A DNA stretch of 64,000 bases from Raphanus sativus (Eukaryota > Streptophyta > Magnoliopsida > Brassicales > Brassicaceae). Location of the stretch: assembly GCF_000801105.2 (NCBI RefSeq), contig NC_079517.1:3782001-3846000 (forward strand), given 5' to 3'. Position numbers and translations under genes: made by a program. Under the pieces are notes generated by a model, which was given only the letters and a program-made list of their open reading frames with translations, did not search any database and was not told the origin of the DNA. Each line of letters begins with the position of its first letter. The first letter of the stretch is position 1. Positions 50,445 through 54,856 of this stretch are shown piece after piece.

Positions 50445-52397
50445 TTAGAAGATTACCTCAATAACAACACGTGGTGTTATGCTTCTGCGTTTGGTTCGGC
50501 CAGAAGAGTTTGTAAACCACTCTGGTTTGTAGGAAACCACTATGTATCCCATCGTGAGTCCAAATGCAATACCAGGTACGAAAGCAATTGCAGCTGCTAT
50601 CCAACTTATCATCCCCTCTTGGCCATCTTCTTCTTCCTTTTCCTTTGACGTTTCAGACTGTTGTGATGTTTTCCCGTGGATATCTACACAAGCTCGAACA
50701 AGCGAAGGGCCATAAAGTCCCGGGTTGTCCTTGAAAGAACTGCAAGGCTGCGTTTGAAACTGGGTGCCCCCTGGTACTAGACCCACAAGCTGGTTATGAG
50801 AGAAGTTCATGTAAGCAAGGTACGAGAGGTTCCCTAGCTCTTGAGGGATTTCTCCCGTGAGCTTGTTTCTGGAAAGGTCCAGTGACTCGAGAGACGAGAG
50901 GTTCCCCATAGATGATGGGATGTGACCCGCGAATGCATTTCCTGATAAGTTGAGGACGTGAAGCTCTTTCAACAAACCGATGGACGGTGGAATCACTCCT
51001 TCGAATTCGTTCTCCGAAAAGTCTAGCGCGGTGTAGATATATAAGATACGTACCAGCTCCATCTCTACGCCTTTGTTCATCAAAACCACTGAATCAGAAT
51101 AATAGGTTGTACCCAAGTAATAGGCTGTACCCATGTACGTTCCGTAAGATTGATCTCCATCTTTGCCAATAGAGTGCATTGCTGTCCAATTCACAAAGAA
51201 GTCCGCTGGCAACACTCCGCTGAAGCGATTATACGATATATCGATGATCCGCAGTTTAGGAAACCGAGTTTGATGTATCGGTCCGTGGAGTGCATTGGAG
51301 CGAAGGACGAGAACTTGTAGCTCGGGGAGAGAACTCAACCAGGATGGAAACGTGTCGTTGAATCTGTTGCTTTCCACATTCAATACTTCGAGAGAAGAAC
51401 TATTGATCAAAGATCTCGGAAGCTTTCCCACCAGTTTGTTATGACCGATGTCAAACGACTTTAGAGACTCGGATACAATGATCTCTGGAAGACGTCCACT
51501 GAGACGGTTTTGTCTAAGATTTAGAGCTTCGAGAGAACTACTGAACTTTCCGATACAAGGCGGGAATGAACCGTTGAATTTGTTGTTGGATAAATCGAGA
51601 ATGGTGAGATAGCGCAGCTCGCATATGAAACTGGGGATTCCGCCCGTGAAATTGTTGTTGGCACCGGACAAGTAATTCATAGAAGATGGTTGCTCGAGCT
51701 TTGTTGGACTTTCGAAACTGACGAAAGTGTTGTTGGAAAGATCTAGGTACTCTAGACCCCATAACCATCCAGGGACTTGACCTTTGATTTTGTTGTTTGA
51801 AACGTCTAGTACCAACATGTTGTGTTGGGTTCGCAGGAGCTCCAGAAACTCGACGGTGATTCCGCATCCTGACAAGTACAGCTCCCTTAATAACGAATGA
51901 TCTGAAACTGAGCTTCTCTTTTCATACGTAACGTGGTTTCCCGTGAGATTCAGTGAATATAGTGATTTCAAATGTGGTAAGATAGCATTCAAGTCAATCG
52001 TAGTGGTGGTGTTCAAATCGGAGATGTCGAGGTTTACGAGTGACTTGAGATTCCAGAAAATGCTAAGGTCAACTGATGAGCCTTGGGTGTTGAGATGCGA
52101 AAGGTCAAGTGTATAAAGGTTGACTAATTTGGAGATGGATCTGGGAATTGATCCCACGAAGTCGTTATTGCCAAGACGTAAAACCTTTATCTCCGATGAT
52201 AATAAAGATACATTCCCAAACTCAAGAGTACCGTTTAGTTGGTTATCTTCCGAAAAAACGTAAGTCAGGGAAGGGATGCTAAAAAGGGAAGAAGGAAGAG
52301 TTCCGATAAAAGCGTTGCGAGTTATATAAAAGTACTCCAAGTTGGAAAGTGAGCTTATGTTAGGTGGAAGCATGCCTGTGAACTGGTTATCAGCGAG
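50445..52397 (-). pseudogene. Receptor-like protein (LRR-RLP), C-terminal 650 residues
   Basis: Open for 650 codons from the insertion site at 52397 to the stop. It holds the bulk of the LRR ectodomain (repeats of the LxxLxLSxNxFxGxIP type), the island region around YYLGTTYYSDSVVLMNKGVE, the last LRRs (LDLSRNKLTGEIPQELGN), the C3 region PGGTQFQTQPCSSFKDNPGL, an acidic juxtamembrane stretch (SKEKEEEDGQEG), one membrane span with GxxxG motifs (FVPGIAFGLTMGYIVV), and a short basic tail without a kinase. RLPs act at the plasma membrane with SOBIR1/BAK1 in immunity or development. The N-terminal part lies beyond the transposon at 54080-54856. No other lesion was seen, so the disruption may be recent. 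A protein starting at an internal Met (52403 region) would lack a signal peptide. Confidence 0.9.
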
Positions 52398-53129
52398 TAA
52401 GAGCATCATTATCCCAAAACTCCTTAAGGATCTCTTAATTAATTTTTAATACTTTTTAAAGTGTAAAAATGAGTTAAAAGACTTAGTTAAGAGATTTGAA
52501 CATTCATGTGCTTTATTGCAAGTCTCTTAATTATAAGTTTTTGAGAAAAATTCAAAATTCATGAAGTACCCTTTTCATTCATAAGAACAATCTCTCCACA
52601 TCTTGTCTCTAAACCATTAGCTCTTGCAAAACTCTTTGGAATATACTGGAAATTCATTACAATAGAGCACGGTTTTGATCAAAATCAGACCCTTTAAATG
52701 AGAGCTTTTGGTTAAAAAATGAGGAGTAGATACCAGCATGTCATATCGCAGGCTTGAAGGCGTGACATTAGCCACATAACAAGATGGATCTAGTGTACAA
52801 GACTCTGCTTCTCTTTTTGTATTCTTTTTCACTTTCTTCTTGCTTTGAATCTTTATGGATCATCCACACAAGCTATCGCTGGAACTTAAATTCTCTATGG
52901 ACTTTCTCTCCTTGGCAAACAACACTGATCCCACATGATACAATAATTAGAAACTCTGTAAAATGGTATTAAAGTTTACTTCGCAGGTTTGAAGTCCATG
53001 TCTTTGCCATTTTTAGAAGGTAGATAACTAACTATACATAGCAATCCAAGAAGAGTGAAAGAGAAGGTACCTCGAAGTTTTTCATGAACGTTGTTGTTCT
53101 GTGTCGTTGCTGGACTCGGACTAAAAAAG

Positions 53130-53515
53130 CTAAAGCTTGGCATAGATATCTTCAACCTAATCAACTCACGCTCCACTTGCGGCTCATTCGAGATATCTTC
53201 AACCTAATCATCAAGTCAAATAGTCAATTAAGAGACACTATTGATGATGTAGAAACTGATGAGTGTGATGTAGAGAAAAAGTAAACAACCTTGAGAACAT
53301 TAACAAGCTTATGAAGCTGCTAAATGACCTGCTGAAGCACCCTTTCAGTTTCAGAGACAACAATGGTGAACAAAGCCTTGTTTCTGTTGAGACCAAACAC
53401 AAGAGACTCGACATTGTATCCTCTCCTCGCAAAGACTCCTGCAATCCTATTAATCATCCCGCTCTCGTCTCTAATGAACGCCGAGATCGTGTGCTTCCTC
53501 ACCCTGTCCAAAGTA
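53130..53515 (-). pseudogene. Captured fragment of the acetolactate synthase regulatory (small) subunit gene
   Basis: On the minus strand about 60 codons read as the first ACT domain of the plant ALS regulatory subunit: DRVRKHTISAFIRDESGMIN, then RIAGVFARRGYNVESL, NRNKALFTIVVSETERV and LQQVI. The codon after LQQVI is TAG where the family has GAG. QLHKLVNVLKV follows, then an intron-like interval, then a second segment DISNEPQVEREL (about 53195-53160). The rest of the roughly 490-residue protein is missing. The intact protein binds branched-chain amino acids and regulates the plastid enzyme. This piece has no start, transit peptide or second repeat and is non-functional. Retained intron boundaries suggest DNA-level capture. 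Confidence 0.85.
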
Positions 53516-53519
53516 AGGT

Positions 53520-53830
53520 ATCATGTTACAATCATATCCAATGATCAGGAAACACATAAAGATACAAACTTTACAATCATATCCAGTGACAGATAAAGAT
53601 GTAAGCTTTTTAAACATTGTTCTTTCACTGTACTTTGATTCTGGAATTGGGGGAGAAGCATCTGTGAAGGGAGCGTCAGAGATCCTCTTGTCTATGCTTC
53701 TAATGATCCTCTCTGTTCTATGAGAGCTGGGGAAGAATTGGAGCAGGGCGATCTTATGCTGCGAAGGGATGGGGGAGAGCACTTCCTTGAACCACCGGTC
53801 ACGTTCATATCAACCAGACAACAAGAAAAC
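53520..53830 (-). pseudogene. Unidentified exon-like segment inside the element
   Basis: An open stretch on the minus strand reads ERDRWFKEVLSPIPSQHKIA, then LLQFFPSSHRTERIIRSIDK and RISDAPFTDASPPIPESKYS. Composition and codon use look like a real plant protein rather than random AT-rich DNA. I do not recognise the family, and it is not part of the ALS subunit as I know it. It may be a second captured host fragment. Confidence 0.45.
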
Positions 53831-54079
53831 AACACAAGGATTTGATCTTCAATTGATTCAGGATCCTACAAGAAACGCAAAGATGAACATCGATGAGATT
53901 GCTTCAACTCTCTCTCTCTTCTCAAAGAGATGAACGCCCAAAAGGCAACACGTGTGCAAAAGACCGTCTTTTATAACTCCTGAATAAGAAACGTTCTTTC
54001 GCAATTAACCTATTTTTCTTTTTCTTTTAATGCTAATAATACGAAGAGACGGATGCAAGTGACCGCGATAAAGATGCTC

Positions 54080-54856
54080 TAATAGATCATACAATTTTGT
54101 TAGATTTAGTAATGTAACAGGAAAGTTACCACTGAGCTTGTTGTCATAAGCAGATAAGATGGTGAGATGTTTCAATCTGCCCAAAGAAGATGGGATTTTA
54201 CCCACGAATCTGTTTTCTGAGAGCTCGAGAGAGGTCAGACGTGAAAAATTTCCGAAAAATGATGGAACTTCACCAGAAAAATTGTTTTCTTCTATACTAA
54301 GATCGGTGAGATGATGAGAAAGGTTTTCAAGTGAGGATGGAATTTCACCAACCAAGTTGTTATAACTAAGTGTAAGATCATTGAGATACGAAAGATTTCC
54401 AAGTGAAGATGGGATTTCACCACTGAAAGCATTATTTGAAAGATCAAGAGTGGTAAGCTTAGAAAGATTTCCAAGCGAAGATGGAACGTTACCAATGAAA
54501 TGATTGTTTGAAAGGTCGAGAGTTGTTAAAAAAGGAAGGCTTTGAAACCCCAAAATAGTACTCTTGGAATTGAGCTGGCCATAGATGCAGTTGTCAGTAA
54601 GGTTCAGCTCAATCACATTCCCAAAAGTGGCATCACATCTGATACCATCCCAAGAATAACAATCGCTGTTATTCATCCATGACACCGTCCGGTCAAAGCA
54701 AGTCTTCTGAATCTGGAACTCCTTCAACTCCAGAATTGCTTCCCTTTGTTGAGGATGGCACAAGTGCCTAGCAGGAACCGCAAACTCATCACGAAATAAG
54801 AAGAGAAAACAAAAGGAAATAGGAATGAGACTTATTGGTTTCGTAGAGCCTTTCAT
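54080..54856 (-). pseudogene. Receptor-like protein (LRR-RLP), N-terminal 259 residues
   Basis: The start ATG at 54856 gives a hydrophobic signal peptide (ISLIPISFCFLFLF). This is followed by the N-terminal cap typical of RLPs (HLCHPQQREAILELKEF, a paired-Cys segment with SWMNNSDCYSWDGIRCD) and then about seven LRRs of the LTTLDLSNNHFIGNVPSSLG type with N-glycosylation sequons (NLS, NFS, NLT). It is interrupted after LLNLTKLYDL, where the element at 52401-54079 begins. Read-through into the element gives about 25 foreign residues and a stop near 54005, so a secreted truncated LRR protein is conceivable. Together with 50445-52397 the original protein had about 909 residues, normal for the family. 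Confidence 0.9.

What the first reader, a model, noticed from the sequence alone, without database searches (positions are those of the whole stretch)
50445..54856. Receptor-like protein gene split by a transposon with the two halves still in frame
Seen directly: 259 codons from 54856, then a 1679-bp element flanked by TAA, then 650 codons to a stop. The deletion of the element plus one TAA restores a single frame across LYDL-LLADN, giving about 909 residues, normal for LRR-RLPs. No other stop or frameshift was found, so the insertion seems young. Precise excision, or splicing out of the element, could restore function. The locus may segregate intact and split alleles.
Basis: seen in the sequence. 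Interest (0 to 1): 0.75.

Follow-up and report, generated by a model that had tools for sequence, protein, structure and literature searches.

The report
Immune receptor gene split by gene-carrying transposon
A plant disease-receptor gene, related to a canola blackleg-resistance gene, is cut in two by a short transposon that itself carries scraps of three other plant genes, so this copy is very probably non-functional while a closely related uninterrupted copy exists in public data.

Summary
A 1679-bp element (52401-54079) with 13-bp inverted ends and a TAA duplication splits an LRR receptor-like protein gene; without it and one TAA the frame reads 909 residues. Tools add four things. (1) The receptor falls in one clade (support 1.0) with Brassica LEPR3 entries, the canola blackleg-resistance locus, and probably at the same chromosomal position. 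(2) The element is a Pack-type PIF/Harbinger-like transposon with fragments of three host genes: acetolactate synthase small subunit, a protein kinase and a B3/REM factor. Two more TWA-flanked copies lie elsewhere in this genome. (3) In this assembly no other match longer than 800 bp to the C half exceeds 77% identity, yet a public protein 94.5% identical in that half runs through the junction: an uninterrupted allele or orthologue exists. (4) 'No other damage' is too strong: the LRR N-cap has a conserved Cys changed to Tyr, one residue missing, and a Pfam score below cut-off. Splicing rescue is not supported beyond chance. Precise excision is plausible but unobserved. New member of a known kind.

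The parts
54080..54856 (-). N-terminal half of LRR receptor-like protein (259 codons)
   Evidence: open frame, LRR Pfam matches
50445..52397 (-). C-terminal half (650 codons plus stop), LRRs and a hydrophobic, transmembrane-like segment (seen by eye)
52398..52400 (.). target-site duplication TAA
54080..54082 (.). target-site duplication TAA
52401..54079 (-). 1679-bp non-autonomous PIF/Harbinger-like Pack element (given in RLP orientation)
   Evidence: two further full copies with TAA and TTA duplications
52401..52413 (+). terminal inverted repeat GAGCATCATTATC
54067..54079 (-). terminal inverted repeat GAGCATCTTTATC
53160..53780 (-). captured fragment of acetolactate synthase small subunit gene, two intron positions retained; exon 2 about 53290-53503; in-frame TAG at 53320-53322 where the parent reads GAG; part of exon 1 missing
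   Evidence: protein; parent G000:C4:37654256-37654988
53144..53163 (-). 20-bp repeat of 53191-53210, at the end of the ALS fragment: template-slip-like scar (inferred)
53191..53210 (-). 20-bp reference copy, intron 2 / exon 3 border of the ALS fragment
52980..53147 (-). captured fragment of a protein kinase gene
   Evidence: loci L026, L027 encode Pfam Pkinase
52548..52852 (-). captured fragment of a B3/REM-type gene, intron-like stretch about 52646-52734
53018..53341 (-). 324 bp present here but missing from the two other copies (C4, C6)

Best explanation
A non-autonomous PIF/Harbinger-like element, filled earlier with fragments of three host genes, jumped into a TAA site in the coding sequence of a LEPR3/RLM2-type receptor-like protein gene, the only close one seen in this assembly. 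The receptor is cut in two: the N half ends 24 residues inside the element, and the C half would lack the original N-terminus. This copy is therefore very probably a null allele of a cell-surface immune receptor. Shown: split, duplication, repeats, gene fragments with parent genes, sister copies, uninterrupted close relative, clade with LEPR3. Inferred: loss of function, transposition by a PIF/Harbinger transposase, fragment capture by template switching, positional orthology to LEPR3/RLM2, immune role.
For: Exact 3-bp duplication and 13-bp inverted ends. Two more full copies with TAA or TTA duplications. ALS small-subunit fragment, E=2.1e-39 to the Arabidopsis chain, ACT_AHAS_ss Pfam, parent gene 80% over 597 bp with the same exon order and intron positions. 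Kinase fragment. B3 fragment, E=9.8e-5, parent 85% over 313 bp. Tree of the C half with the 80 best-scoring proteins: window and P0001 pair (support 1.0) inside a 12-member clade (1.0) that holds both LEPR3-named entries. C-half identity to nine Brassica relatives picked for alignment 79.8-84.3%. No other genome match over 800 bp above 77%. P0001 uninterrupted at the junction.
Against: No expression data. A transposase-bearing partner with the same ends was not tested. The TIR is short. The B3 match in the element is below Pfam's cut-off, and the flanking ALS protein matches are weak (E 0.0053-0.21). P0001 comes from a short unnamed contig and lacks the first ~80 residues, so allele versus orthologue cannot be settled. 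Only 40 of 74 candidates were scored, short pieces (under 60 bp) reach 86%, and the same search for the N half did not complete. N-cap changes could mean the gene was already failing before insertion.
Confidence: 0.87

Rival explanations
1. The element is spliced out as an intron and the gene still makes a slightly altered receptor.
For: 81 in-frame donor/acceptor pairs exist; the best gives 925 aa (donor 54009 in the element, acceptor 52376 in the receptor).
Against: The best score is not unusual: 11 of 200 shuffled elements reach it, and a pair lying wholly in the receptor exons (54129/52376, 885 aa) scores almost the same, 5.38 against 5.45. The weight matrix was recalled, not trained.
Confidence: 0.06
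2. The receptor was already a dying pseudogene when the element landed; the insertion had little effect.
For: C67Y in the conserved CCxWxG N-cap, one missing residue, LRRNT_2 17.4 bits against cut-off 20.7 while both relatives scanned score 35.4; C-terminal tail altered.
Against: No stop or frameshift in 909 codons; 13 of 27 departures from otherwise invariant positions are shared with P0001, so these are lineage variation. The other 14 are not shared or, for C67Y, lie where P0001 has no sequence. The timing of C67Y relative to the insertion is unknown.
Confidence: 0.25
3. The split is an assembly artefact: a repeat element wrongly joined into the gene.
For: Sister copies exist elsewhere in the genome, which can mislead assemblers.
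Against: This copy is 324 bp longer at one place than both others and differs from them by K2P 0.033-0.034, and a perfect target-site duplication flanks it.
Confidence: 0.03

Closest known systems
Pack-TYPE transposons, Pack-PIF/Harbinger class (Gisby and Catoni 2022, PMC8903248, passages seen)
   Same: Non-autonomous TIR element carrying host gene fragments; insertion inside a gene; Pack-PIF described in maize and rice.
   Different: Here in a Brassicaceae genome, fragments of three genes, and it breaks a coding exon instead of adding one.
Tourist-like MITEs / PIF/Harbinger (Monkey King in Brassica, PMC4471910, passages seen; mPing, PMC4561436, abstract seen)
   Same: 3-bp TAA/TTA duplication, short TIRs, multiple copies, short related copies of the ends.
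   Different: TIR is GAGCATCWTTATC, not Monkey King's GGGC(or T)CTGACTGGTT; the element is about 1.4-1.7 kb with captured gene pieces.
LEPR3/RLM2 blackleg resistance receptor of Brassica napus A10 (PMC4302512 and PMC5983482, passages seen)
   Same: LRR-RLP of the same clade; neighbouring genes fit the same chromosomal interval.
   Different: This copy is split by the element; no resistance function is known for it; host species not named by the tools.

Membership tests
PIF/Harbinger (Tourist-like) non-autonomous element | 3-bp TWA target-site duplication | tested here: met
   TAA, TAA, TTA at 3 of 3 full copies
PIF/Harbinger (Tourist-like) non-autonomous element | short terminal inverted repeats | tested here: met
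   13 bp with one mismatch
PIF/Harbinger (Tourist-like) non-autonomous element | ends shared with a transposase-bearing partner | not tested
   search for the transposase family did not complete
Pack-TYPE transposon | host gene fragments between transposon ends, parents present elsewhere in the genome | tested here: met
   ALS small subunit, kinase and B3/REM parents found
Pack-TYPE transposon | the filled element has itself transposed | tested here: met
   3 full copies carrying ALS and B3 pieces, each with its own duplication
LRR receptor-like protein | LRR ectodomain, no kinase domain | tested here: met
   LRR families only at E <= 0.001
LRR receptor-like protein | LRRNT_2 N-cap | tested here: inconclusive
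   17.4 bits, below the 20.7 cut-off; P0003 and P0034 score 35.4
LRR receptor-like protein | signal peptide and transmembrane segment | not tested
   hydrophobic stretches visible by eye; no predictor run
LEPR3/RLM2 locus | same clade as LEPR3/RLM2 sequences | tested here: met
   12-member clade, support 1.0, with P0034 and P0044 (named LEPR3); 81 sequences, 650 columns, midpoint root. By E-value the LEPR3-named entries rank only 34th and 44th of the 120 listed; both cover 80% of the query
LEPR3/RLM2 locus | same chromosomal neighbourhood | tested here: inconclusive
   neighbours EMB3135-like and decarboxylase-like; LepR3 lies between At5g12180 and At5g11250 homologues; the interpolation to about At5g1188 is mine and the neighbours' AGI numbers are recalled
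LEPR3/RLM2 locus | recognition of AvrLm1/AvrLm2 | not testable with these tools
   needs plant assays

The most novel reading that the evidence does not exclude
The insertion turned one receptor gene into two expressed pieces: a secreted 283-residue N-terminal LRR fragment with an element-coded tail, and a 654-residue C-terminal receptor whose start codons are supplied by the transposon's terminal repeat. These could act as decoy or modulator of the intact allele in heterozygotes.
Probability: 0.05. Interest if true: 0.6.

Novelty: new member of a known kind. Interest (0 to 1): 0.38.

Why it matters
If orthology holds, it is a natural knock-out of a blackleg-type resistance receptor in a Brassica relative, caused by a gene-carrying PIF/Harbinger element; the one paper whose passages I saw on Pack-PIF elements describes them in maize and rice (PMC8903248). 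The exact duplication and the existence of an uninterrupted relative make presence/absence and reversion directly testable by PCR. The element also offers a readable record of capture: three donor genes, kept intron positions, a 20-bp slip-like repeat and short shared letters at junctions.

Tried and rejected
Rejected: intron-like rescue by splicing. Considered and held unlikely: P0001 as a paralogue in this genome, since no match over 800 bp to the C half exceeds 77% (40 of 74 candidates scored; short pieces under 60 bp reach 86%; unassembled copies possible). Not found: an annotated truncated protein matching the N half with its element tail; of 2782 hits 120 were listed, the best-scoring (P0191) aligning 63% of the query at 85%. 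Led nowhere: PDB search of the B3 fragment (0 hits) and of one ALS stretch (0 hits); Pfam on the five other element frames tried. Not answered: origin of the element's 5' block 53781-54079, the N half in the own genome and the transposase search. Species: not named by any tool; the 433-Mb genome with large contigs (52.2 and 53.7 Mb for C4 and C6) suggests radish (Raphanus) to me, from recall only. Also fetched but not used as evidence: PMC4625043 (outline), PMC9693284 and PMC7459127 (passages).
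Full report
Observation. The element spans 52401-54079 (1679 bp) between two TAA copies, with inverted ends GAGCATCATTATC / GAGCATCTTTATC; of flank lengths 2 to 11 only 3 matches. The receptor reads on the minus strand: 259 codons from 54856, then 650 codons to the stop at 50445-50447; the empty site gives 909 residues and one terminal stop. Read as it stands, the N half runs 24 codons into the element (283 aa) and stops. The 654-aa ORF of the C half starts at ATG codons inside the element's terminal repeat.

The receptor. Both halves match LRR families and no kinase. 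For the C half, 7960 candidates were scored, 6291 matched and 120 were listed; the best is P0001 (95% over 98%, source Logan, contig 3026 bp), followed by B. napus 'putative cf-9 protein' (82%) and other B. oleracea and B. napus proteins. The LEPR3-named entries rank 34th (B. juncea, 80%) and 44th (B. napus, 78%), each covering 80% of the query. In a FastTree of the C half with the 80 best-scoring proteins, window and P0001 pair with support 1.0 inside a 12-member clade (1.0) holding both LEPR3 entries and eight other proteins; by the names, Brassica ones. In an alignment with 12 proteins that I picked from 240 listed, C-half identity is 94.5% to P0001 (605 of 640), 79.8-84.3% to nine Brassica proteins and 72.2% to one of A. 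lyrata; the twelfth hardly overlaps. N-half identity to P0001 is 87.7% (157 of 179). P0001 runs through the insertion point without interruption; it begins at about residue 81 of our numbering. In the window's own genome no other match over 800 bp to the C half exceeds 77%; pieces under 60 bp reach 86% (40 of 74 candidates scored). The same search with the N half did not complete. P0001 is best read as an allele or orthologue from another plant.

The locus. A 290-aa protein at 41704-42573 is 80% identical to Arabidopsis EMB3135 (P0131); 58989 onward encodes a decarboxylase of the DAP/ornithine type, and 29032, 33452 and 38137 encode glutaredoxin, GH32 and (E=4e-4, below cut-off) alpha/beta-hydrolase pieces. 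I recall these as the At5g11880-At5g11930 order. In B. napus, LepR3 (BnaA10g20720D) lies between homologues of At5g12180 (BnaA10g20490D) and At5g11250 (BnaA10g21210D) (PMC4302512, passages); interpolating by gene number, my own estimate, puts it near At5g1188. LepR3 and Rlm2 are alleles on A10 with a C09 homoeologue (PMC5983482, passages). Positional orthology is therefore likely but not proven.

Damage beyond the insertion. At positions invariant among the relatives with data (504 with a window residue), the joined protein departs at 27, one of them a gap; 13 of these are shared with P0001 (shared ones counted by hand). C67Y breaks the CCxWxG N-cap (motif name recalled) and one residue is missing about 21 residues upstream. 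LRRNT_2 scores 17.4 bits (cut-off 20.7) against 35.4 in P0003 and P0034. The C-terminal tail reads SITPRVVIEVIF where six relatives read RISTTRR; P0001 and P0010 end earlier and three LEPR3-like entries stop before it. There is no stop or frameshift in the LRR body.

The element. The frame at 53320-53514 matches the first ACT repeat of Arabidopsis acetolactate synthase small subunit 2 (6u9h_F residues 82-143, E=2.1e-39; Pfam ACT_AHAS_ss). Weak but collinear matches extend it to residues 7-28 (E=0.21), 54-89 (E=0.0053) and 155-174 (E=0.029). The genome's own gene at C4:37654256-37654988 matches 597 bp at 80% and 49 bp at 84%, intron positions included, with part of exon 1 missing from the element and TAG in the element where the gene has GAG. 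A second fragment (about 52980-53147) matches two kinase genes, at C6:36.39 Mb and C8:2.26 Mb (Pkinase). A third (52548-52852) matches a cluster on C4 near 34.57 Mb at 85%; the element's own B3 match is E=9.8e-5, below the Pfam cut-off, while the parent scores 85.8 bits. All three lie in the receptor's orientation. The last ~150 bp recur in 21 further places, the two sister copies left out, among the 46 matches listed, and the first ~160-195 bp in 3 (40 of 140 candidates scored): MITE-like family ends.

Sister copies and capture. Copies at C4:12.006 Mb (1355 bp, TAA) and C6:46.445 Mb (TTA, 2402 bp including a nested 1032-bp element with its own TTA) share a 324-bp deletion at a 4-bp AAAG match and a 10-bp duplication, both read by eye. 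K2P distances: window-C4 0.034, window-C6 0.033, C4-C6 0.018. With a recalled rate of 1.5e-8 per site per year this is roughly 1.1 and 0.6 million years; it dates copy divergence, not this insertion. At the end of the ALS fragment a 20-bp stretch from the intron/exon border is repeated, and the kinase fragment starts on shared ATCT letters. Kept introns, donors from different chromosomal places and the slip-like repeat fit serial template switching during DNA repair; this is inference. A neighbouring-element fusion model has been proposed for Pack-CACTA (PMC13317346, passages).

Rescue. Of 81 in-frame splice pairs the best is reached by 11 of 200 shuffled elements, so no special splicing signal is seen. 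PIF/Harbinger and Tourist elements generally excise precisely (PMC4561436, abstract); clean excision here would restore the frame but not the N-cap.

Novelty. Pack-PIF elements are known in maize and rice (PMC8903248, passages). In Brassicaceae, the Thlaspi arvense genome paper reports 359 genes inside transposons as possible Pack-TYPE elements, 153 of them Mutator-like (PMC9055812, passages), and B. napus has 3156 Helitron captures (PMC11986588, passages). I saw no Brassicaceae Pack-PIF or ALS-capture case in the listings, but these show only 8-20 papers each from the open library. Verdict: a real, probably young, well-explained transposon disruption of an immune-receptor-type gene; new member of a known kind.

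Noticed in passing
L010 (G000:C6:46443300-46446800): A 1032-bp element with ends GAGCATCTCCAATGG / GAGCACCTCCAACGC and TTA duplication is nested inside the C6 sister copy.
   Followed up: partly
window 43338-43683 and 44706-45057: Direct repeat of about 350 bp at 91% identity, 1.4 kb apart, possibly ends of a small LTR-type element.
   Followed up: no
window 5515-6242: Large imperfect palindrome, about 725 bp at 80% identity to its own reverse complement, foldback-like.
   Followed up: no
window 11243-11704 and 55739-56180: Inverted pair of dispersed repeats, 77% over 478 bp, one upstream of the receptor gene.
   Followed up: no
window 53781-54079: Most of the 5' block of the element before the ALS fragment has no assigned origin; the genome search for it did not complete.
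   Followed up: partly
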